DNA from: Anaerolineaceae bacterium
GTDB lineage: Bacteria > Chloroflexota > Anaerolineae > Anaerolineales > Anaerolineaceae
Length of the DNA stretch: 64,000 bases
Assembly (NCBI GenBank): GCA_029975475.1
Contig: JARKPB010000008.1
Coordinates: 620,001-684,000, forward strand
Direction: 5' to 3'
The notes beneath the pieces were generated by a model, which had not been told where the DNA came from, searched no databases, and worked only from the letters and a program-made list of their open reading frames with translations. The translations under genes were made by a program, and so were the position numbers. Shown one piece after another: positions 3,377 to 13,227 of the stretch (positions are counted from its first letter, which is position 1; each line of letters opens with the position of its first letter).

Positions 3377-4205
3377 ATTTGAGTGGCACTCAGCATCGGG
3401 TGAGGAGACCCGGTTGGATTCAGCTCCGTTTTATGTGCTTGATGAGATTAGCGGACATTTGCTCCCGACATTTGATCGAAGAGAGATCCGAACAAGTGCG
3501 TACACGCATTTACTGGGCATCGGGGTAAACGCGCGGGATCTCAGTTTGCCGCTTTTGATTCGGGCGTCATCGCTGGAAAATGTGATGCGATTGTGCGCCA
3601 GGTACTGGAATCCGCTAAACGGAGACGGGACGCTGGTTTATGTATCGGACAGTGGGGAACGCCGGCAACTGGCCTGCCGTTATACGGGTGGGTTGGAGGG
3701 GAGTGCTTCATACAACCGGGGATGGATGAAGGCGGTTTTGCGATTGCGCGCGTTGAATCCGTTCTGGCAGGCAACTGACTCGGAAACGTATCAGGTGCAG
3801 CTTTCCGAACCAGTGCCTTTTTTTCAGCCGCAATTTTTCCCGCTGCATATTTCCAGCGGTGTGCTTAACGGGAATTTAGTCATTCAAAATTCGGGCGATC
3901 TGGATAGTTTCCCGGTTTTCACTGTTACAGGACCGGCAACGTATTTAAAGGTTAACCGGAATAATGAGGTGTTTTTTGAATTTCCAAATTTGACGATGAA
4001 CACGGGGGATGTTCTTGTGATTGATACTCGCCCCGGTCGGTACTCAGCAATCATTAACGGTGAGAATGCGTTTCAGTTACTGTCATCGAACAGTAAACTT
4101 TTCTCATTTGTCCCGGGAGAAAATGTGGTTACAATCGCCGCCAACGGTGTGAGCGCTGCGAGCAAAGTGTATTTTGAATTTGTCAGGTGTTATTGGACGA
4201 TCTAA
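3369..4205 (+). CDS. Distal tail protein (Dit-like)
   Basis: A 278-residue protein that starts inside the end of the tape measure gene (8-base overlap), the usual place of Dit, the ring that joins the tube to the baseplate or tip. The N-terminal half (to about residue 145) has the mixed strand pattern of the Dit core, ending near LRLRALNPFWQA. Many siphovirus tail-component proteins have a similar NP.W motif. The C-terminal half is a beta-rich domain (about 155-278) like the galectin-type domain of longer Dits. No signal peptide or membrane segment is present. The call rests on position and on these motifs. Confidence 0.75.
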   Translation: MARFEWHSASGEETRLDSAPFYVLDEISGHLLPTFDRREIRTSAYTHLLGIGVNARDLSLPLLIRASSLENVMRLCARYWNPLNGDGTLVYVSDSGERRQLACRYTGGLEGSASYNRGWMKAVLRLRALNPFWQATDSETYQVQLSEPVPFFQPQFFPLHISSGVLNGNLVIQNSGDLDSFPVFTVTGPATYLKVNRNNEVFFEFPNLTMNTGDVLVIDTRPGRYSAIINGENAFQLLSSNSKLFSFVPGENVVTIAANGVSAASKVYFEFVRCYWTI

Positions 4206-5260
4206 TGGACTACACGATTTATGTTGAAACGATGGAGGGCGTTCGTCTCGGGCAGGTCGATTTTGAGTCGATTTCCGCGGTATTACGCTGGCGCGCGCCG
4301 GGTACGTACAAGGTAATACTATCTGATATTTCAGAAATTGATTTGAGGGGAAAACGGCTGCGGATTTGCCGCGGGGATAAAACAGTGATCAGCGGGCCGA
4401 TTACCGCAGTTACGGAAATCTGGGATGGTTTTATGAGTTCTTTTACAGTGACAGGGAAGGATGATCTGGCTCTGCTTGAGACCCGGTTGATCACTCCGGT
4501 GCCGGGTGGACCACCGTATACGGCATCGAGTCATCATGTTGTTTCTGGGCCGCTGGAGAGTGTGATTCACACGTATGTTGCTGCTCACGCCGGGCCAGAT
4601 GCGATCGCTTCACGCCAGATCGCGGGGCTGATGATGGGAACGGATTACGGGAGAGGCGTTTCGCTTGAAACACGCGCACGATTCGTTTCGCTGTTTAAAT
4701 GTATTGAAGGCTTGGCGGCGATTGAAAATTTTGGTCTGTCCATGTCGGAGATGACGTTTCGGGTTCTGGCCCCCCGGCATACTGAGTATACCCTGTCTGC
4801 TGACCTGCAAAATTTGCTGAGTTTTGAGTGTGTTCGGTCTGCGCCAGATGCAAACTATTTTTTTGTGGGCGGCAGCGGAGACGGAGCTGCGCGAGTGATT
4901 ACGGAGGTCGGTCGCGCAGAAAGTATTGCATTTTGGGGGAAGCGGGAGGGTTTTCTGGATCAGCGGGATGTAAGCAACACGGATGAGTTGTTGAGAACAG
5001 CGGAGTCGCAACTGGCGTATATTTCGGAGGCGAACATATCGTTTAGCGGACTGGCAACTCTGGATGAGGTATCTCTTGGCGATCAGATTCGTGTAATCTA
5101 CAAAGGGGTTATGTACGAGGAAACGATCGAATCAATGAATTTACTGGTTGACAGTATTGGAGAGGTTTTGACGATTTCGAACCGGCAGAGAACGGCCGGG
5201 ACGTTTGATGCGATGAAGAATATGAATGATCGCTTGCGGTTTTTGGAGGCGGTGAAATGA
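4205..5260 (+). CDS. Tail protein, siphovirus Gp37-like family
   Basis: A 351-residue protein starting at the ATG that overlaps the Dit stop (TAATG). The N-terminal strands (MDYTIYVE, LGQVDFESISAVLRWRAPGTY) and the later GDQIRVIYKG, GEVLTISNRQR and FLEAVK segments match the general plan of the ReqiPepy6 Gp37-like proteins. These replace the classical Tal/tail-hub protein in many phages of Gram-positive and related hosts. It probably forms the tail hub below Dit. An upstream TTG in the same frame at 4187 is less likely because it would overlap Dit more deeply. No peptidase or lysozyme domain is evident. Confidence 0.7.
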   Translation: MDYTIYVETMEGVRLGQVDFESISAVLRWRAPGTYKVILSDISEIDLRGKRLRICRGDKTVISGPITAVTEIWDGFMSSFTVTGKDDLALLETRLITPVPGGPPYTASSHHVVSGPLESVIHTYVAAHAGPDAIASRQIAGLMMGTDYGRGVSLETRARFVSLFKCIEGLAAIENFGLSMSEMTFRVLAPRHTEYTLSADLQNLLSFECVRSAPDANYFFVGGSGDGAARVITEVGRAESIAFWGKREGFLDQRDVSNTDELLRTAESQLAYISEANISFSGLATLDEVSLGDQIRVIYKGVMYEETIESMNLLVDSIGEVLTISNRQRTAGTFDAMKNMNDRLRFLEAVK

Positions 5261-6078
5261 CGAAAATTTCATATCCGTTTGATGATTCGGTTGTGATGCA
5301 GTCGCAGTGGAGCGCGATGGCGCAGAACTGGTTAAAATCGGGGGTAATTCCGGGAACCGGTGAGAATCTGCTGGTTTATGCGGATTCGACCGGTATGCAG
5401 GTGAAAGTTAAATCCGGCGCGGCCTGGATTAAGGGGCACTACTTTATGTCATCCAGTGAAGAGGTTCTCCAGATCGGGGCGGCTGATCCGACAAATCCGA
5501 GAATCGATCGAGTGATTTTGCGGCTTTCATGGATTAATAAAGTAATTGACCTTGCTGTTCTCACCGGCACGCCGGCTGCGAATCCGACCGCTCCGACGCT
5601 AACGCAGTCAACATCTGTCTGGGAGATTGGATTGGCGCTGGTACGCGTCAATGCGCAGGTTTCGACGATCTCCGCAGATAAGGTGAGCGATGACCGGTAT
5701 TTGCTGGGACGACGGTTGTCTGTGATCTGCGTGCCATACGATATTGGTCTGGTTGTTAAGAATGGTGTGACTCAATTTACGATTCCAAAGTGGGCGAATA
5801 ACTGGAAACTGCTGTCCGCAGAAGCCGGGCTTCATACGCCAAGCACTTCAGGGGCTCCGACGATTCAGCTTTACAGTCTGCTGCAGGCTCAAAATTTGCT
5901 GTCGACGGCGATTTCTATTGATGCGAATGCGTACACGTCATATTCAGCGTCAACTCGATCAGCGGTAAATCCGGTGTACGCGACACTGCAAACCGGTGAA
6001 CGCATTCGGGTTGATGTAACCGCGGCGGGCACGAATGCGAAGGGGCTGGAGCTGTTTTTGATCTTTCAGGAGGGATGA
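5257..6078 (+). CDS. Baseplate or receptor-binding structural protein
   Basis: A 273-residue protein coupled to the preceding gene by an ATGA overlap. The N-terminal region (about 1-150) resembles upper-baseplate proteins: short beta strands with a GMQVKVKSGAAWIKGHYF motif and a Pro/Thr-rich turn (PAANPTAPTLTQ). The C-terminal part (about 160-273) is a small beta sandwich of the kind used for host binding. There are no catalytic motifs. Position after the Gp37-like gene supports a tail-tip role. I cannot name a family with certainty. Confidence 0.55.
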   Translation: MTKISYPFDDSVVMQSQWSAMAQNWLKSGVIPGTGENLLVYADSTGMQVKVKSGAAWIKGHYFMSSSEEVLQIGAADPTNPRIDRVILRLSWINKVIDLAVLTGTPAANPTAPTLTQSTSVWEIGLALVRVNAQVSTISADKVSDDRYLLGRRLSVICVPYDIGLVVKNGVTQFTIPKWANNWKLLSAEAGLHTPSTSGAPTIQLYSLLQAQNLLSTAISIDANAYTSYSASTRSAVNPVYATLQTGERIRVDVTAAGTNAKGLELFLIFQEG

Positions 6079-6692
6079 TGCCGATCTCGATTGTATCCAC
6101 TGTGAACACGACCGGTACATCCGTCTCATTGACGACCTCCGGGGTGGATCGGGCAGTGGTTGTATTTGTCTCCGGGGCAAATTTGACCAAACCAACAGCG
6201 ATCACTTACGGAGGTGTGTCGCTATCAAAAATTGTTGAAAATACTACAGCAGCGACGCGCTATGCTGCGATCTGGCTGCTGCTGAATGCTCCTCTGGGAA
6301 CAAATTCTTTGGTGCTCAACCAGAACGGGGGATACAGGGTTGTCGCCTGCGCGCTTCAGGATGTGCTTTTAGGCGCGGGTGTGGTTGGAACAAATACCAA
6401 TCAATCTACTTCTACTGAGGCGATTGGTGTAACGATCAGTAATCTGATCGAATCTGACTGGGTTCTGGCGACGATGGGAGCGCAGTATGACGTCACATCG
6501 TTTAGCGTGACCACGGGTACGCAAATTTATAACGATAATAATCATCACGTCTCCGCTTACAGAATCAGCCCTGACACATCCGCGACCGTGAATTTTGCGA
6601 TTAATCCAGGTAGCAACGTGGCACTTGCGGCGCTTGCACTGCGAGCGGCAGACAGTCTGAAGGCGGGTCAATTGCTTGATTGGAACTTATAA
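6078..6692 (+). CDS. Last tail-module protein, beta-rich, function unknown
   Basis: About 204 residues, rich in Thr, Ser, Val and Gly, with a strand-turn pattern seen in carbohydrate-binding or fibre-tip domains. Of two adjacent ATG codons (6075 and 6078), the second is better spaced from the AGGAGG at 6068-6073. It is the last gene before the convergent integrase and its TAA overlaps the integrase stop by six bases, so no separate terminator fits between them. A receptor-binding or decoration role is a guess from position; I do not recognise the family. Confidence 0.5.
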   Translation: MPISIVSTVNTTGTSVSLTTSGVDRAVVVFVSGANLTKPTAITYGGVSLSKIVENTTAATRYAAIWLLLNAPLGTNSLVLNQNGGYRVVACALQDVLLGAGVVGTNTNQSTSTEAIGVTISNLIESDWVLATMGAQYDVTSFSVTTGTQIYNDNNHHVSAYRISPDTSATVNFAINPGSNVALAALALRAADSLKAGQLLDWNL

Positions 6693-7628
6693 TTTCCAGC
6701 AATCGGCAGGGCTTGCCCTGCGGTGAGCAGACTGTGTATCGAGATCAGCCAGTGCCAGGTAGTTTTGCACCATATTCAGTGTGGTGTGGCCAAGAATGCG
6801 CTGGAGGGTGAAGACATCGCCGCCGTTGCGCAGGTATTGGATAGCAAAAGTATGACGGAAACGATGGGGATGAACGTTCGGGATGCCGGCGCGGTTGCCG
6901 ATACGGTTTAGCAATTTGCGGAGGGTGTTTTTATCCAGCGGATGTCCTGCGCGACTGGTAAATAATTCATCCCCCGGGTACTCAGTATCCCGGGCGGTCA
7001 GATAACGCCAGAGGTTCTTTTTGGCAGCTTGGCCTATGGGAACAATCCGCGGTCTGGATTTGATGCCTGACAGAAATGGCCGTACAGTAAGGGCGGCGTT
7101 CTGTATATCAATATCAGCGATTGTCAGGCGGCACAATTCTGAAGCACGGAGACCGGTGTCGAGCAGAAGTATGATAATGGCGCGGTCTCGGTGAGCTGTA
7201 GAACGAGGCATGGTAAACGGTTCGCGTTTTCCCCGGGATGGTGCGGTGCGGTCAATCGCCTTGAGCAGGGCTTTTATTTCGGCTTCTGAAAGTGGCTGGA
7301 TTTGGCGGTAGGCAAAGCGAGGTTTGGTCAGGAGTTTATCAGGGCGGTCTGAAAGACCTTCTGATGCGGTCCACTTGTAGAAAGCCCGCAGTGCTTTCCA
7401 TACATGAAATACAGAGGTGCGGGATAGACGGGGGTTTTCTTGAACCGATGCCATAAAACGGCGGAGGTCGTCTACGGTGACCTGGCGGAGCGGCTTATCC
7501 ACGACCTGTCTCAGCATACTGAGTGCCCAGCGGTACTGATCAATGGTTTGGGGACTGTAGCCGTCGGCGCGGCGGGCGATGAGAAAGCCTTCGATTGTCT
7601 GAGAAAGTAAGAGGCCTTTGGTTGACAT
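6687..7628 (-). CDS. Tyrosine-type phage integrase
   Basis: A 313-residue site-specific recombinase. The N-terminal core-binding SAM-like domain (about 1-100, TIDQYRWALSMLRQVV) precedes the catalytic domain. Catalytic residues are visible: Arg in DTGLRASEL, Lys in SGIKSRPRIV, HxxR in HRFRH, His in LGHTT and the nucleophile Tyr in MVQNYLAL. A GGGAGG ribosome site lies upstream. Transcription runs away from tRNA-Pro toward the tail genes. It should catalyse integration at the tRNA-Pro 3' end. It is only distantly like the recombinase at 44024-44998. Confidence 0.92.
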   Translation of the reverse strand: MSTKGLLLSQTIEGFLIARRADGYSPQTIDQYRWALSMLRQVVDKPLRQVTVDDLRRFMASVQENPRLSRTSVFHVWKALRAFYKWTASEGLSDRPDKLLTKPRFAYRQIQPLSEAEIKALLKAIDRTAPSRGKREPFTMPRSTAHRDRAIIILLLDTGLRASELCRLTIADIDIQNAALTVRPFLSGIKSRPRIVPIGQAAKKNLWRYLTARDTEYPGDELFTSRAGHPLDKNTLRKLLNRIGNRAGIPNVHPHRFRHTFAIQYLRNGGDVFTLQRILGHTTLNMVQNYLALADLDTQSAHRRASPADCWKL

Positions 7629-7647
7629 TGGAATCCTCCCGAAGTCA

Positions 7648-7771
<124 letters not shown>

Positions 7772-7821: not shown

Positions 7822-8565
7822 TTAAAATTCTAGGCTTTTTTTCCCGGCGGCATAAAAAGTGGGGATAAACATCCATTCCGGTGTGGCGAAGTTCCCAGGT
7901 GGGGCACCTGCTGCCAGCCGGTTAAGATCATCCTCAAGAACCTTTCTCTCGATTAAATTCGAGACTTGATTGCCTGTCCATTCACCGCCCATCACGCCGT
8001 AAATCACTTCTTTCAATCCCGCCTGGATGATTAACGGGCCAATCCGCCGTCCGGTATCCAGCCGCGCGCCTTGCTGGATCAAGGATTCATTTTGCAATTT
8101 GCCCCGCTCAACTGCCGCGGGCGGGAAATCGATCCGCGCTTGATAATCCGGTTCGGCAAAGACGGCCAGAATGCCGCCGGGTTTTAGCACCCGGATCATT
8201 TCCCCGATCAGCGGTTCCATTCTCCTGACCCAGAGGAGAAGATAATGGCAGTACACCAGATCGAAAACGCGATCCGGCAGCGGCAGTGCGTATCCATCCG
8301 CGCAGATCAGCCGCTGAGATCCCTCCCGCGTTTTTTGCTGATGAAAAAGTAAACTGCTGAACGCCAGATCAATCCCGAATACCGGGCTATCTGGGTGGGC
8401 GGTGCGAATAGAGGTCATGACCGCCCCGGTACCGCAGCCGACTTCCAGCACAGAACCTGAACGAAAACCCATCCTATCTAAAAGGCGCGCGCGGACCTGT
8501 TCGCTCCAGCCAGCCTGTTCAAGGTATCGGCTGTGCCAAAACTCGAGATCAAGACTCGTCGACAT
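7822..8565 (-). CDS. Class I SAM-dependent methyltransferase of the radical SAM operon
   Basis: A 247-residue Rossmann-fold methyltransferase. Motif I is VLEVGCGTG (about 39-47), the acidic residue of motif II is in FGIDLAF, and later motifs include DGYALPLPD, FDLVYCHYLLLWV and VLKPGGILAVF, the pattern of the UbiE/COQ5-like Methyltransf_11 group. Its start overlaps the preceding gene by 17 bases, so the two are probably translationally coupled. It is the last gene of a five-gene operon with a Cys-tailed membrane protein and two radical SAM-fold proteins. Methylation of the same peptide is an inference; a small-molecule substrate is equally possible. Confidence 0.85.
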   Translation of the reverse strand: MSTSLDLEFWHSRYLEQAGWSEQVRARLLDRMGFRSGSVLEVGCGTGAVMTSIRTAHPDSPVFGIDLAFSSLLFHQQKTREGSQRLICADGYALPLPDRVFDLVYCHYLLLWVRRMEPLIGEMIRVLKPGGILAVFAEPDYQARIDFPPAAVERGKLQNESLIQQGARLDTGRRIGPLIIQAGLKEVIYGVMGGEWTGNQVSNLIERKVLEDDLNRLAAGAPPGNFATPEWMFIPTFYAAGKKSLEF

Positions 8566-9706
8566 TTTTTAAGACGGCCGCGATGGCGTCCCATTCATCC
8601 GTCAGCAGATTACCGCACGGCTTTAGAATGTCCTGTCCAGGCAGCACGTCTCCATCGGGCTCTATATAAATCCACGCTTTCCCGGCTCCCCGTGGATACT
8701 CATCGCCCTCCTCCAGCGCGACTGGGTTCTGGTCGGAGTAAGGAACCGGTAAATTCCAGACCAGGTGGCCGCCGCGCGCGGCAATCAGGTCTGCGGCTTC
8801 CCGCAATTCCGGCTGAGCGGCGGCGTCTGCGGCGCTTAATGAAAATTCGTTTACGCCCAGATCCAGCAGTTTCTGGATCGCGCCTTTCGTCCTTTGAAGG
8901 CTGCCGCGAAGTACGGTCAGGTGAACGGTCAGATGGATGTCCTCTGCCAGTGCATCCCGAACTGCCTCCCAGGCCTGTTCTTCCTCGTCCTGCAGGATGA
9001 TCATCAGGTGATCCAGACCCTTCTCCAGGAGGGAGTGTAAGTAACGGGTTTCTGATATGCGGCTGCCGTCGGTAATTACTCCAGTCACCTGGCCAATGGC
9101 CTGGGCGATCCCAATCAATTCCGGTAAATCCGGACGGGTTGTCGGCTCTCCCCCGGTAAAAACAATGTGAACGATGCCCGCCTGCCAGCATTTTTCCAGG
9201 ATGGTTTGCCATTCGGCGGTGGTTAATTCGCGTTTTACCCGATCAGCCAGAGAACGGCCGGGGAGATTTATGGAGGTTCGGTAAGTCAGGGCGCAATCCG
9301 CCCGCAGGGGAGAGCCCGCGGAGTGAATTTCTCTGCGTTCCAGCCCCAGGTTAATTTCAGGGTCCAGGTCTTCCGTAGTTAAAAGCGTGTCAATTCGTGC
9401 CTTAAAATCTTCAAAATCCGTCCGCGCCTGAGCCGCAGAGACGCGGTACCGCCGGGCAATCGTTGTTTCAACCGCTTCACGCGGGTTGGTTTCGCACATG
9501 TAATAAGCGAATTCTGCGGCTGTCTGGTTTAAATGTAAGATAACCCTGGCATTTAAGACCAGCGTGCCGTTCCCATCTGGATGTATTCTCAAATGTGCGC
9601 GCACGGGTTTTTCCTGAATATTCCAGGTCGCCTGATAGATTCCAGGCGGCAGGCGGTAAACAGGCGGGAATAATTTGTTAAAAATGTTAGTGATCCATGA
9701 TTTCAT
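8549..9706 (-). CDS. Radical SAM-fold pseudoenzyme with PqqD-like N-terminus
   Basis: A 385-residue paralogue of the neighbouring radical SAM/SPASM protein. Residues 15-115 match that protein's N-terminal region (PGIYQATW, VRAHLRIHPDGNGTLVLNARVILHLN), which looks like a PqqD-type peptide-recognition winged helix. The core keeps ALTYR and the SAM-contacting FTGGEPTTRPDL (183-194). The three cysteines that hold the 4Fe-4S cluster are replaced by Thr144, Leu148 and Arg151, and the SPASM cysteines are gone too (LPGQ where the partner has IPCQ). It should therefore be unable to do radical chemistry. A regulatory, scaffold or substrate-presenting partner is likely. The frame is long and intact, so it is not simply a decaying pseudogene. 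Confidence 0.8.
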   Translation of the reverse strand: MKSWITNIFNKLFPPVYRLPPGIYQATWNIQEKPVRAHLRIHPDGNGTLVLNARVILHLNQTAAEFAYYMCETNPREAVETTIARRYRVSAAQARTDFEDFKARIDTLLTTEDLDPEINLGLERREIHSAGSPLRADCALTYRTSINLPGRSLADRVKRELTTAEWQTILEKCWQAGIVHIVFTGGEPTTRPDLPELIGIAQAIGQVTGVITDGSRISETRYLHSLLEKGLDHLMIILQDEEEQAWEAVRDALAEDIHLTVHLTVLRGSLQRTKGAIQKLLDLGVNEFSLSAADAAAQPELREAADLIAARGGHLVWNLPVPYSDQNPVALEEGDEYPRGAGKAWIYIEPDGDVLPGQDILKPCGNLLTDEWDAIAAVLKNVDES

Positions 9707-9721
9707 GGGTTCCTCCCGTAA

Positions 9722-11089
9722 TCAACACCAGCTTTTTTCCATTACGGCTTGCGGGGAAAAATGATCTCTCGCCAGCGGACATCCGCCCCCGCAAACATCA
9801 AAAATGGCGCAGTGTTTACATTCATCCGCGGCATATTCCCGATTTCGAATGGATTGAGCCAGCGGCGCGTTCCAGATTTTTTCCCAGGGGTCTATAAGAA
9901 TTTGCCCAAGCGGTTGGTAATAAGACTGGCATGGGATGACCTGCCCGTTGGGCTCGACACACATGTTGGTGTATGCCGCTGTGCATCCCTTCACACCAAA
10001 ACCCGCCTCAACCGGGTCAAAATGGCAGTATTGTGTGGGTGTGTACCAGATCAATTTTTGACCGTATCGGCCAGTTATTTCGCGGGCGATATCCAGCAAG
10101 GGGTGAAGTTCGGTTTCGGACAGTCCAGCGTCGGATGCCGCGCCTTTTCCCGAGTAAATCAGCGCGTTTAAGCCAATGGTTGGCACACCCAAACTTCCCA
10201 GAAAGTGAAGCATATCTTCCAAATAAGGCGCATTCGACCGCAGCAGGGTGGTGTTGGTCATGATGAAAAGCCCGGATGCGACCGCGTTGCGGATCCCCTC
10301 GGTGGTTTCCTCCCAGGCGTTCTTTGCCTGGACCATGTGGTCGTGAATTTCAGATCGGTGGGATTCGAGGGTAATCTGGATATGATCTAAACCGGCGGCT
10401 TTTAATTCTTCAACATAACGTTTATCTGCAAGCCGGCGGCCGTTGGTGTTGATCCCGGTGATTTGCCCGTTTTTTTCAGCGTGGCGGATTAGGTTGGTCA
10501 GGTCGTTGCGTAAAGTTGGCTCTCCGCCGGTAAAAACCAGGTGAGGAATGCCCTCTTTCCAGCATCGATCAATGATGGTGTGCCAATCCGCTTCATTCAG
10601 CTCTGGAAAATTTCGGGGCCGCGCGTTGTAGCAATGGCTGCAATCATTGTTGCAGCGGTAGGTCAGGGCGAGATCCATGCGGTAAGGCGCGGTCAGGCTG
10701 GCAGAAAACGGTGTTTTCACCTCGAGATCAAAATCGCAGATTGGGCAGCTTCCGTCTGAAAAGATCAACTGATCCAGCTGCTGACAGTGATTGTTATAGG
10801 TTGATTCGAAATCCTCAACCATTCCCTGAAAATATTGTCTGAAAACTGCCTTTCCCGAATTTGCCGAATGGTTATTTAACGCGAGAAATGACATTAATGC
10901 CGCGCTGGGATTCAGCGCAAATACCCTGGCAGCGTTGATCAGCAGCGCGCCGCTTAGATCGGGGTTGACCCGCAGATGAACTCGTGCCCGGTCTCCGTTC
11001 TCACGCTGGCGGTCAAAATGATACACACCAGGCGTGAAAGTGGAGGAAGTTTCGCCTGAAGGTTTTTTCAATCGGGCGAGGAGATCCAT
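9722..11089 (-). CDS. Radical SAM/SPASM peptide-modifying enzyme
   Basis: A 455-residue enzyme. Residues about 18-125 form a PqqD-like recognition region that also holds a CPIC pair (115-118). The radical SAM core has Cys146, Cys150 and Cys153 (CNNDCSHC) and GGEP at 188-191. The C-terminal SPASM-type region has Cys355, 369, 377, 387, 424, 427, 433, 437 and 455, enough for two auxiliary 4Fe-4S clusters. Such enzymes install thioether, C-C or other bonds in ribosomal peptides. The start codon lies two bases after the Cys-tail gene, and its ribosome site (GGAGGCGG) is inside the tail codons. I infer that it modifies that tail. The family call is firm; the substrate is not proven. Confidence 0.88.
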   Translation of the reverse strand: MDLLARLKKPSGETSSTFTPGVYHFDRQRENGDRARVHLRVNPDLSGALLINAARVFALNPSAALMSFLALNNHSANSGKAVFRQYFQGMVEDFESTYNNHCQQLDQLIFSDGSCPICDFDLEVKTPFSASLTAPYRMDLALTYRCNNDCSHCYNARPRNFPELNEADWHTIIDRCWKEGIPHLVFTGGEPTLRNDLTNLIRHAEKNGQITGINTNGRRLADKRYVEELKAAGLDHIQITLESHRSEIHDHMVQAKNAWEETTEGIRNAVASGLFIMTNTTLLRSNAPYLEDMLHFLGSLGVPTIGLNALIYSGKGAASDAGLSETELHPLLDIAREITGRYGQKLIWYTPTQYCHFDPVEAGFGVKGCTAAYTNMCVEPNGQVIPCQSYYQPLGQILIDPWEKIWNAPLAQSIRNREYAADECKHCAIFDVCGGGCPLARDHFSPQAVMEKSWC

Positions 11090-11091
11090 GT

Positions 11092-12792
11092 TTATCTACC
11101 GCCTCCGGCGCAGGCACAGGCACAGCCCGCGCAGGCGCACGCGCAGGCGCAGGAACCGCCGCCGCCTCCACGCCAGCCAGACCTGGAGCTGGAGGGAGGT
11201 GGGGGAGGATTGGTCACGTTTGTAACCGCGCCAGTGAAACCGGTCAGATCGCCGATCACGTTGCTGCTAAAGTTTTGAATTGAATTTGCCATGGATGCCG
11301 CGAAGTCAGCGCCTGGCAGAGTGGGCAGATTGATATTAATCGTCCTGCCGCCGCCGCTTCCCGTTCCAAGGGACGCTCCCGCGTTGCTGGCCGCGGGGCG
11401 CAGGCTGGGATCGAAGCGCCCCCACCACTGCGGGACGATCACCGGTCCGCTGCCAAAGGTTCTGGAAGTGCGAGTGTCAAAATCTCGATCCAGCAGTGTC
11501 CAGCCCATGACTTCGTCATAGACCTGGCTTTTAACCTCTGGCGTGCCAGCCGCTTCGACCTGCTGCCAGGCGCGTTCCATAATCGCATCGTAATAAGCGA
11601 TGGTTTCCTTTCTGCTGAATCCTTTCATTTTTTCGGTAACGCTTTTCACCAGGCCAACCATCATGGTCTGCAGCAGACGTTTTCTACCAGCCGGGTTCGG
11701 TTCCTGGAAGGCGCGCAGAAAATCCTGCTCGTACGGATACAACCCTTCGGGCAGCGGCGATTCGACCTGAATGGTCAGGGGATCTTTGCTGACCACGCTG
11801 GCAGCGCCTTTCTTGACCACAGAAAAGAGCGTCATGGTCATGACTTTGTCCAGCGGAAGTTCTTTTAGAACGGCTGCTTCGATCGCCGTCAAACCGCGTT
11901 TGACGCCGTGACCTTCTATCGCGATTTTTGGCGGCAGGTACTGCAGTTTGCGCTTCTTGGCCGCGCTGATGGAACCAAAGATAGCCACGATAAAGAACAG
12001 CAAAAAGCCACCCGTGCAAAGAAAGCCGAACAATCCGTCTTCTGAAATCTGAATGCTCGGTTGAGAAGCCGGGCGGGGCTGTTCTGATGCAACGGCAGTG
12101 GAAGGAACAAGTCGGGCTGGAAATGCCGCTCCAAATATGTAAGCGCGCGAGGCTGACCCCTTTTGCGTTTCCCAGGTGAAATACACCCTGCCGTCTTGAT
12201 CGAATCCAGATTCAGTCGGCTGGTCGGCTTCTGGCCAGCCCTGAGGGGGATAGTAACGCGGTTCCTGATCGGTCATGCCAGCGGGCAAGACCAGACTGAC
12301 TTTAACCCTCGTGGAACCTTTGACAAATTCCGAGCCAAAATAATTGGTGGCGATTTGAAAGCTCGCGTACGGTTCACTCTCGCTGGCAGTGCCCGAATAC
12401 AGAACACCGGAAATGTTGGCGATGGTGACATGCACATTTCCGCGCTGCCCCGGGCGGATGGAATTCGATCCCAGTCCCAGAGCGATGCCCGGATTGACAT
12501 AGGGCGACTTTTCAATATTGGTTATCGGTTTTCCATCAACATCGGCTTTGATGTAATTAAAATCATAATTGCTGTTCGGAAGGCCAATATCCACGTAATC
12601 AATTGGTCCGGCCCCCGGGTCATTCAAGAAAACATAATCATACTCAATCGTAATTGTCCCATTCTGGTTGACAAATACGATCATCTCCATGCTTTCCACT
12701 TGAAAATAATAATCCGCCGCCGCAACCGGGCTCGCGGACGCGCCGAGGGCAAGAAGGATAAGAAAGACGCTCGCCAGGCGTAAAATTTTCAT
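11092..12792 (-). CDS. DUF2207 membrane protein with Cys-Ala repeat C-terminus
   Basis: A 566-residue protein starting at the ATG preceded by GGAGGGAG; an upstream in-frame ATG (12825) lacks such a site. A signal peptide (1-25, ending SPVAA) leads to an extracytoplasmic DUF2207-type beta domain (26-250). One membrane helix follows (about 254-277), then AAKKRK and a cytoplasmic domain (280-460). Next come a Gly/Ser-rich linker, five prolines (529-533), a Gly run and the tail at 547-566 with seven cysteines alternating with Ala. Many DUF2207 proteins end in plain Gly/Ser runs; a Cys-Ala end is unusual. The predicted topology puts the tail in the cytosol, where the two radical SAM-fold partners encoded just downstream could reach it. 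Confidence 0.85.
   Translation of the reverse strand: MKILRLASVFLILLALGASASPVAAADYYFQVESMEMIVFVNQNGTITIEYDYVFLNDPGAGPIDYVDIGLPNSNYDFNYIKADVDGKPITNIEKSPYVNPGIALGLGSNSIRPGQRGNVHVTIANISGVLYSGTASESEPYASFQIATNYFGSEFVKGSTRVKVSLVLPAGMTDQEPRYYPPQGWPEADQPTESGFDQDGRVYFTWETQKGSASRAYIFGAAFPARLVPSTAVASEQPRPASQPSIQISEDGLFGFLCTGGFLLFFIVAIFGSISAAKKRKLQYLPPKIAIEGHGVKRGLTAIEAAVLKELPLDKVMTMTLFSVVKKGAASVVSKDPLTIQVESPLPEGLYPYEQDFLRAFQEPNPAGRKRLLQTMMVGLVKSVTEKMKGFSRKETIAYYDAIMERAWQQVEAAGTPEVKSQVYDEVMGWTLLDRDFDTRTSRTFGSGPVIVPQWWGRFDPSLRPAASNAGASLGTGSGGGRTININLPTLPGADFAASMANSIQNFSSNVIGDLTGFTGAVTNVTNPPPPPSSSRSGWRGGGGGSCACACACAGCACACAGGGR
11095..11154 (-). other. Putative modified peptide: C-terminal Cys-Ala tail
   Basis: Codes for residues 547-566, SCACACACAGCACACAGGGR. 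The codons vary (TGC/TGT; GCC/GCG), so the repeat is kept at the protein level and is not a simple DNA microsatellite. Seven cysteines separated by single alanines or Gly-Cys resemble the core of a ribosomally made, post-translationally modified peptide, here fused to a membrane protein rather than encoded as a small precursor. Metal or cluster binding is an alternative. Confidence 0.6.
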
Positions 12793-12825
12793 GGTTCTCC
12801 CTCCAAACAGTAATCGGGAAGCCAA

Positions 12826-13179
12826 TCACCACTTCGGTTCTTCGGTGATCTGGTACGTTGTTTTGCAGTACGGACAGGTGACGATTGGTGCGCCGTTGGA
12901 TAAAGTAATATTCTCGGCTGATAACACGCCCCCGCAGGATCGGCATTTCATCGATTCCATGGTCATATTACCCGGTAAGTCAATTTTGACCACCACATTT
13001 TGATCGCCCGGAGCAGATTTTTTCCGGTTGATAAAGAAAATTAATGCCAGTCCGATTGCCACAGAGATCAGACCCACAGGAATCCAACCAGTGGATCCAT
13101 TCGGGCTAAATGCTCCCCAGATGAACAGCACCCCGAAGAATATTAATATTGAGGCGATGATATTGACGACAATTTTCAT
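12826..13179 (-). CDS. Small membrane protein with zinc ribbon
   Basis: A 117-residue protein, first in the operon. Two membrane helices (about 3-24 and 32-51) are followed by a basic turn (NRKK) and a soluble C-terminal part with four cysteines (79, 82, 102, 105) in the pattern CRSCGG...CPYC, a rubredoxin-like zinc or metal ribbon. The ribbon is likely cytosolic, the same side as the Cys-Ala tail of the next product. Only 33 bases separate it from the DUF2207 start. It could guide or stabilise the membrane protein, or handle metal for it. The name of the family is not known to me. Confidence 0.75.
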   Translation of the reverse strand: MKIVVNIIASILIFFGVLFIWGAFSPNGSTGWIPVGLISVAIGLALIFFINRKKSAPGDQNVVVKIDLPGNMTMESMKCRSCGGVLSAENITLSNGAPIVTCPYCKTTYQITEEPKW

Positions 13180-13195
13180 AGCATCCTCCGATGCT
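13180..13195 (-). repeat. 6-4-6 palindrome around the ribosome site of the operon
   Basis: AGCATC and GATGCT flank CTCC, which on the coding strand is the GGAG of the first gene's Shine-Dalgarno. It directly precedes the ATG. Because the predicted start of transcription falls inside one arm, it may work as a DNA operator rather than as an mRNA hairpin. Confidence 0.4.
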
Positions 13196-13198
13196 TAC

Positions 13199-13227
13199 AG
13201 TGTAGCAAAAAGGTGGTGGACTGGCAA
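13199..13227 (-). promoter_or_regulatory. Promoter of the Cys-tail/radical SAM operon
   Basis: On the minus strand TTGCCA (13222-13227), 17 bases, TACACT (13199-13204), with TGC just before the -10 (an extended -10). Transcription would start near 13192, some 12 bases before the first ATG. All five leftward genes down to 7822 are closely spaced and can be read from it. Confidence 0.6.

What the first reader, a model, noticed from the sequence alone, without database searches (positions are those of the whole stretch)
7822..13227. Operon that may modify a membrane-protein Cys-Ala tail with a radical SAM pair
The DUF2207 membrane protein ends in [20 protein letters not shown] with seven cysteines. 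Two bases later starts a radical SAM/SPASM enzyme with PqqD-like peptide-recognition region and full auxiliary-cluster cysteines, then a cysteine-less paralogue, then a methyltransferase. The tail lies on the cytosolic side by predicted topology. Ribosomal peptide modification normally acts on small precursors; a C-terminal core fused to a transmembrane protein would be a different arrangement. The codon variation in the tail shows selection on the protein. Functional roles of the tail and of each partner are inference.
Basis: partly seen in the sequence, partly recalled or inferred. Interest (0 to 1): 0.9.

Follow-up and report, generated by a model that had tools for sequence, protein, structure and literature searches.

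The report
Cysteine-tailed membrane protein with its maturase
A membrane protein ending in an almost unchanging cysteine-alanine tail is inherited together with a radical enzyme that probably modifies that tail, in many bacterial phyla and in Asgard archaea; our searches found no description of the pair in print.

Summary
The window protein ends in [20 protein letters not shown] (7 Cys); two bases after its stop begins a radical SAM/SPASM enzyme, then a paralogue without radical SAM cysteines and a methyltransferase. Tail and close enzyme co-occur: in 400 genomes of the phylum 28 have both, none has one alone, 372 have neither; in 249 of the class 30 have both, 4 the enzyme only, none the tail only. 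The tail recurs in about ten bacterial phyla and Asgard archaea. It is the only run of invariant columns in 62 proteins, written by many different codons. A homologous pair has tails of HSAC repeats beside a 31-37% identical enzyme, in 24 of 30 genomes. The enzyme's nearest solved folds are peptide maturases (SkfB, SuiB). Best reading: a SPASM enzyme with a recognition domain acts on the cytosolic tail of an intact membrane protein. The chemistry, perhaps thioethers, is unproven, and the paralogue is not universal. Predicted MNIO-modified TIGR04222 tails (PMC12452194) are a partial precedent.

The parts
12826..13179 (-). 117-aa membrane protein with CxxC...CxxC ribbon; first gene of the cluster
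   Evidence: found upstream on the same strand in 55 of 58 tail-A loci with room
11092..12825 (-). DUF2207-like membrane protein: signal peptide, extracytoplasmic beta domain, one TM helix (residues 251-285 of the 566-aa form), cytosolic helical domain, Gly-rich linker, Cys-Ala tail; likely ATG start at 12792
11095..11154 (-). Codons of the tail [20 protein letters not shown] (7 Cys)
9722..11089 (-). Radical SAM/SPASM enzyme with N-terminal RRE/PqqD-like domain; presumed tail maturase
8549..9706 (-). Paralogue of the rSAM without CX3CX2C and without a SPASM match; presumed accessory subunit
7822..8565 (-). SAM-dependent class I methyltransferase (Methyltransf_11), substrate unknown

Best explanation
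The operon makes a membrane protein whose cytosolic C-terminal tail is the substrate of a dedicated radical SAM/SPASM enzyme. The enzyme's N-terminal PqqD-like domain holds the protein (inferred). Radical chemistry then acts on the Cys-Ala repeats on both sides of the central Gly. The most likely product, by kinship to sactipeptide maturases, is a set of thioether cross-links, giving a small Cys-derived knot that stays attached to the membrane protein (inferred). The paralogue without radical SAM cysteines is an accessory or docking subunit in part of the family, and the methyltransferase adds methyl groups to the tail or acts later (inferred). Shown here: the invariance of the tail, the near-perfect co-occurrence, the predicted fold and conserved cysteines of the enzyme, and a homologous second system with HSAC tails. 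Not shown: any modification, its chemistry, or the function of the tail.
For: Co-occurrence (both / tail only / enzyme only / neither) 28/0/0/372, 30/0/4/215, 87/0/1/13. Adjacency: rSAM within 3 kb downstream on the same strand in 65 of 73 tail-A loci with room; the other 8 have an rSAM on the opposite strand of the locus (L199, L211) or elsewhere in the genome. Tail under strong purifying selection: 17 of 17 last columns invariant in 62 proteins of 28-56% identity to the window protein, the only invariant run of two or more; 190 distinct tail proteins, 186 ending GGGR. rSAM: CX3CX2C and seven SPASM-region Cys invariant in 67 of 67; best folds SkfB and SuiB, then 5why; PqqD in 43 of 67. HSAC tail upstream of the distant rSAM in 24 of 30 genomes; both proteins homologous to the CA pair by profile comparison (membrane protein E 1.1e-33, enzyme E 2.8e-89). 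On the rSAM tree the HSAC enzymes form one clade (support 100) and tail types cluster (3 changes against 29.0 in shuffles). Tail of the window protein predicted on the cytosolic side, where rSAM enzymes work (recalled).
Against: No mass or activity data. Co-occurrence shows a functional link, not that the tail is the substrate; the ribbon protein and the methyltransferase are also conserved neighbours. The paralogue is absent from the fetched stretches of several phyla (for example Hodarchaeota L195 and L236, Zixibacteria L203, Coatesbacteria L205), and one genome of 97% completeness (G292) keeps the paralogue with neither tail pattern nor close rSAM. In G200 and G273 tail and enzyme lie on different contigs. 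Topology is not uniform: 41 of 74 tail proteins have one hydrophobic segment after residue 60, 33 have more, and positive charge is higher on the C-terminal side for 85 of 125 segments; some type B proteins may have a TM hairpin, which would leave the side of their tail open. One HSAC-type enzyme with room upstream has no such tail (L374). In two whole genomes with a tail (G718, G723) no rSAM was found at E<=1e-30, and in G719 only a 36% fragment.
Confidence: 0.62

Rival explanations
1. The enzyme modifies the tail, but not by thioether cross-links: for example oxidation of Cys as in sulfatase-maturating enzymes, epimerisation of Ala, or methylation together with the methyltransferase.
For: anSMEcpe (rank 10), PqqE (11) and EpeE (43) are also among the fold neighbours. 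The unit shared by the two tails is Ala-Cys rather than an obvious Cys-acceptor hairpin (inference). A methyltransferase is in the cluster in 10 of 15 tail-A loci with 5.5 kb of room downstream.
Against: The nearest neighbours by fold are SkfB, SuiB and 5why, and by sequence SkfB. SkfB makes thioethers (title and start of abstract of PMC6231123 in the listing), and the entry title of 5why names thioether formation (the enzyme name CteB is recalled). SuiB makes a Lys-Trp bond (recalled).
Confidence: 0.25
2. The tail is not covalently changed. It is a metal or Fe-S ligand, or an electron or metal donor for the rSAM, which acts on another substrate.
For: Alternating CxCxC and CHSAC repeats are good metal ligands (inference). 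The tail is kept with the enzyme even when unlinked. The ribbon protein upstream is conserved (55 of 58).
Against: Two divergent enzymes match two different repeat tails. The enzyme has a recognition domain and the fold of peptide maturases. No other substrate gene stood out in the cluster, though small peptide genes were not searched for systematically.
Confidence: 0.15
3. A classical RiPP: the tail is modified, then cut off and released.
For: Same enzyme class as sactipeptide maturases.
Against: In the window cluster no protease, transporter or immunity gene was seen among ORFs of 80 aa or more; other loci were not annotated gene by gene for these. Housekeeping-like distribution: one match in most members of the family. 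The tail sequence is almost the same across phyla, unlike bacteriocins (recalled).
Confidence: 0.06
4. The tail is a low-complexity repeat kept by replication slippage, with the rSAM next to it by operon accident.
For: The tail is close to a 6-base repeat on DNA level.
Against: 104 distinct DNA sequences encode the identical 17 residues; co-occurrence even when unlinked.
Confidence: 0.01

Closest known systems
TIGR04222 membrane proteins with MNIO (DUF692) enzymes (PMC12452194; abstract and passages seen)
   Same: Membrane protein with large extracytoplasmic domain and a C-terminal Cys/Gly/Ser-rich low-complexity tail, encoded beside a metal-dependent peptide-modifying enzyme; predicted substrate only. 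A weak TIGR04222 match in the window protein lies at residues 307-383 (E 0.027).
   Different: Enzyme is MNIO, not radical SAM. The paper places the tail in the periplasm and reports a loose association (a third of the genomes with TIGR04222 genes lack MNIO genes). The window protein is far below the TIGR04222 cut-off (14.1 against 43 bits).
SPASM/RRE radical SAM peptide maturases (SkfB, SuiB, and 5why, recalled as CteB)
   Same: RRE, radical SAM barrel and SPASM domain; nearest solved folds; SkfB nearest by sequence (E 1.9e-17).
   Different: Known substrates are small peptides (recalled); here the putative substrate is the tail of a 566-aa membrane protein, kept with almost no change across phyla.
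DUF2207 membrane proteins (for example SMU.243 of Streptococcus mutans, PMC10457818; passages seen)
   Same: Extracellular N-terminal part, TM, intracellular C-terminal part with a Gly/Ser-rich stretch; an HSAC-tailed protein passes the Pfam cut-off.
   Different: The word cysteine does not occur in the main text of that paper. The window protein falls below the Pfam cut-off.
Pseudo-radical SAM partners (IPR026418 in PMC10352776, passages seen; TIGR04347)
   Same: A paralogue without radical cluster cysteines encoded beside an active rSAM and a putative substrate.
   Different: Not a member of TIGR04347 (34 bits, 525 needed). PqqD matches in 23 of 37.
rSAM systems with repeat substrates (TvgB, TVGG repeats; Asp-Cys repeat clusters; PMC9062424, passages seen)
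   Same: rSAM enzymes acting on, or predicted for, repeated short motifs.
   Different: Precursor peptides; the passages seen show no membrane-protein tails and no Cys-Ala or HSAC repeats.

Membership tests
RRE-containing radical SAM/SPASM peptide maturase | CX3CX2C radical cluster motif | tested here: met
   Invariant C146, C150, C153 in 67 of 67; 72 of 72 full-length close copies
RRE-containing radical SAM/SPASM peptide maturase | SPASM auxiliary-cluster cysteines | tested here: met
   Pfam SPASM in 67 of 67; C355, C369, C387, C424, C427, C433, C437 invariant; but a Cys after CX2CX5CX3C in only 17 of 67
RRE-containing radical SAM/SPASM peptide maturase | PqqD-like recognition domain | tested here: met
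   Pfam PqqD in 43 of 67 members, not in the window copy; strands and helices at residues 21-109 of the model in the order of that fold
RRE-containing radical SAM/SPASM peptide maturase | Modifies a peptide substrate | not testable with these tools
   Only genetic linkage
Sactipeptide/ranthipeptide system | Small leader-core precursor peptide | tested here: not met
   Candidate substrate is a 566-aa membrane protein
Sactipeptide/ranthipeptide system | Cys-derived thioether | not testable with these tools
   Needs mass spectrometry
DUF2207 (PF09972) | Pfam gathering score | tested here: not met
   13.2 against 24.4 bits; an HSAC-tailed homologue has 31.0 bits, met; the two groups are homologous, E 1.1e-33
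TIGR04222/MNIO system | TIGR04222 cut-off and an MNIO neighbour | tested here: not met
   14.1 against 43 bits; no MNIO match among the five window genes
TIGR04347 pseudo-SAM | Curated score | tested here: not met
   Paralogue 34 against 525 bits

The most novel reading that the evidence does not exclude
The Cys-Ala and HSAC tails are two forms of one ancient system: a protein-derived cofactor or metal-binding knot, built by a radical SAM enzyme on the cytosolic tail of a membrane protein and kept there for life, shared by many bacterial phyla and Asgard archaea.
Probability: 0.3. Interest if true: 0.92.

Novelty: new variant of a known kind. Interest (0 to 1): 0.8.

Why it matters
If true, radical SAM peptide chemistry is used not only for small natural products but to finish the tail of a conserved membrane protein, in lineages known mostly from metagenomes. 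The invariant tail, the dedicated enzyme and the second, HSAC version give a clear and cheap test (co-expression and mass spectrometry) and a handle on the unknown function of DUF2207-type proteins.

Tried and rejected
Rejected: chance or slippage origin of the tail (codon variation; one site in the own genome). Rejected: tail without enzyme as the common state. Hits of the CACAxCACA pattern without Gly in the middle were counted as not this tail: G283, G293, G294; G404, G616, G641. Of the 119 stretches, 12 have no C-terminal tail. Searches for [18 protein letters not shown] and DUF2207 plus radical SAM gave no paper; some searches listed papers, of which I opened five; only the held open-access library was searched.

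Rows left out and how counts were made. 'Close' rSAM means 39% identity or more over most of the enzyme (37% or more in the scripts); that is 34 of the 65 matching genomes, the rest being G292 (paralogue only) and 30 with the distant enzyme (31-39%; G314's 39% is a partial match); 28 of 31, after setting aside G292 (paralogue) and G136 and G168 (distant enzyme). Alignment A1 has the window plus 61 of the 74 non-redundant tail proteins; left out were 11 with tail type B, L185 (broken frame) and L258. A2 has the window plus 66 of 72 full-length close rSAM copies. The family table was read by eye; G054's single pattern hit is not a tail, and only the fetched loci were checked at sequence level. 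The 190 tails need a central Gly, so the G083 form (L090) is not among them. L199 and L211 carry label A in the tree, but their rSAM belongs to a B-like branch. The 4 class genomes with enzyme and no tail pattern: G105 (85% complete; rSAM in a 108-kb contig), G106 (rSAM at contig end), G228 (3.5-kb contig), G257 (68% complete).
Full report
What is there. On the minus strand of 7822-13179 lie five genes in one direction: a 117-aa membrane protein with two CxxC pairs; a membrane protein of 566 aa (from the ATG at 12792) ending [20 protein letters not shown]; a radical SAM/SPASM enzyme that begins two bases after its stop; a paralogue of that enzyme without CX3CX2C; and a class I methyltransferase.

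The tail is conserved beyond chance. The 29 best homologues of the whole membrane protein in the family sample (L002-L030) all end in (CA)4-5-G-(CA)3-GGGR. In the own genome the pattern of three CA pairs occurs only in this tail. Among 62 proteins of 28-56% identity to the window protein, the last 17 columns are invariant and form the only run of two or more invariant columns. Nine of these 17 were fixed by the pattern that found those rows; the others were not. The same 17 residues are encoded by 104 different DNA sequences among 124 fetched copies, some genes having been fetched twice. Over all loci fetched there are 190 distinct tails by their last 120 residues, with (CA)n-G-(CA)m of 4+3 (117), 5+3 (23), 3+4 (18), 3+3 (17), 2+4 (12), 4+2 (2) and 2+3 (1); 186 end in GGGR. 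Members of one genus vary (for example [19 protein letters not shown] in L090, GGGGGR ends in L086 and L089).

The tail and the enzyme go together. Phylum sample of 400 genomes: tail with central Gly in 28, close rSAM in 28, the same 28 genomes; Fisher p 1e-43 without correction for kinship. Class sample of 249: tail in 30, close rSAM in 34, all 30 within the 34. Family sample of 101, by eye: 87 with both, 1 with the enzyme only (G039, 69% complete), 13 with neither, among them the one-contig genome G017. In named genomes, 107 of 119 pattern loci carry a true C-terminal tail; 81 of the 107 have the close rSAM inside the fetched stretch. The genomes of the other 26 were searched whole: 24 have a match at E<=1e-30, 23 of them at 39% identity or more (three of these clearly partial) and one (G719) a 36% fragment that may be the paralogue; the two without are G718 and G723. 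Where 1.5 kb or more is held downstream, 65 of 73 type A loci have the rSAM within 3 kb on the same strand; type B loci have it upstream where held (4 of 5). In G200 and G273 the two lie on different contigs, so physical linkage is not needed.

Spread. By record titles and tree labels, loci with a true tail come from Chloroflexota, Fermentibacterota, Aminicenantes, Acidobacteriota, Zixibacteria, Coatesbacteria, Edwardsbacteria, Planctomycetota (Pirellulales), Armatimonadota, Hydrogenedentota, an actinobacterial and a deltaproteobacterial MAG, and Asgard archaea (Hodarchaeota, Heimdallarchaeota, Sigynarchaeota, Lokiarchaeota). Those seen outside Chloroflexota are nearly all MAGs, so single cases may be binning errors.

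A second system. The rSAM search of the class also found 30 genomes with a distant, 31-39% identical enzyme. Upstream of it, in 24 of 30, lies a membrane protein ending in HSAC repeats (for example ...[50 protein letters not shown]). In five of the other six the contig ends close upstream; L374 has room and no such tail. One HSAC protein tested is over the Pfam DUF2207 cut-off, and its enzyme matches Radical_SAM, SPASM and PqqD. Profile comparison shows that the CA-tail and HSAC-tail membrane proteins are homologous (E 1.1e-33), and so are the enzymes (E 2.8e-89). On the enzyme tree of 97 rows the HSAC type is one clade with support 100 and tail types cluster. So two divergent enzymes each keep their own Cys-repeat tail on the same kind of membrane protein. 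This is the strongest sign that the tail is what the enzyme works on.

The enzyme. In 67 aligned sequences the radical cluster cysteines and C355, C369, C387, C424, C427, C433 and C437 are invariant. The model (pLDDT 90.5) has an N-terminal domain of strands followed by helices, a barrel and a SPASM region. Foldseek's best matches are SkfB, SuiB and 5why (recalled as CteB); BlsE, anSME and PqqE follow. By sequence SkfB is nearest (E 1.9e-17). A Cys after CX2CX5CX3C is missing in 50 of 67; an open cluster site that could bind a substrate thiol is possible (inference). The paralogue has CX3CX2C in 0 of 46 copies, keeps a PqqD match in 23 of 37, and is not found in the fetched stretches of several phyla, so it is probably accessory.

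The membrane protein. The model shows a signal peptide, a beta domain with weak resemblance to M1 aminopeptidase N-domains and, in part, to subunits of the oligosaccharyltransferase complex, one TM helix, a helical domain and a disordered tail. Positive residues follow the TM helix of the window protein, so its tail should lie in the cytosol, as rSAM chemistry requires. Over 74 tail proteins the topology is less clean: 41 have one hydrophobic segment after residue 60 and 33 more than one; some type B proteins have two possible TM segments, which leaves their side open.

Mechanism. I commit to this: recognition by the RRE, radical chemistry on the Cys-Ala repeats, product kept on the membrane protein; thioethers are the likeliest product (about 0.35 of the total probability), other Cys or Ala changes next. 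The function (metal binding, redox relay or stress sensing) is open. A DUF2207 protein of Streptococcus mutans affects stress tolerance and biofilm (PMC10457818, passages seen), which fits but does not decide.

What is known. The nearest printed idea is that of TIGR04222 membrane proteins as MNIO substrates with a Cys-rich periplasmic tail (PMC12452194, abstract and passages seen). I found no paper that names this tail or the HSAC tail (searches; held open-access library only, and listings not read in full). Hence a new variant of a known kind, with a wide distribution.

Noticed in passing
L307-L310, L368-L393: HSAC-repeat tails on DUF2207-type proteins beside a related rSAM; a system in its own right.
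   Followed up: yes
L305:978-4409: A protein kinase-AAA protein (1143-aa open frame) whose C-terminal part resembles the end of the tail protein and carries the [19 protein letters not shown] tail; fusion or MAG misassembly.
   Followed up: partly
L199, L211, L324, L331: B-like rSAM copies with a Cys-Gly extension of their own (GCSGSCGTG) beside a short DUF2207-like protein; in L199, L211, L207 and L272 the tail A gene is followed directly by the paralogue.
   Followed up: partly
L302:4319-5164: A type B cluster holds a small protein matching the methionine synthase B12 activation domain (25.3 against 25 bits).
   Followed up: no
L181:3823-5232: Between rSAM and paralogue of a related genome lie a small protein with weak PAS matches below the Pfam cut-offs and a protein without a Pfam match.
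   Followed up: no
window 4187-7771: Phage tail and virion genes, an integrase and a tRNA-Pro (7695-7771) right beside the operon: a prophage or remnant at a tRNA gene.
   Followed up: partly
L402:2942-5644: Part of the beta domain of the tail protein occurs in a frame that begins like a protein kinase and lacks the tail; the domain is not specific to the system.
   Followed up: no
L313:2598-3752: Genome G292 keeps the paralogue but shows neither the tail pattern nor a close rSAM.
   Followed up: partly
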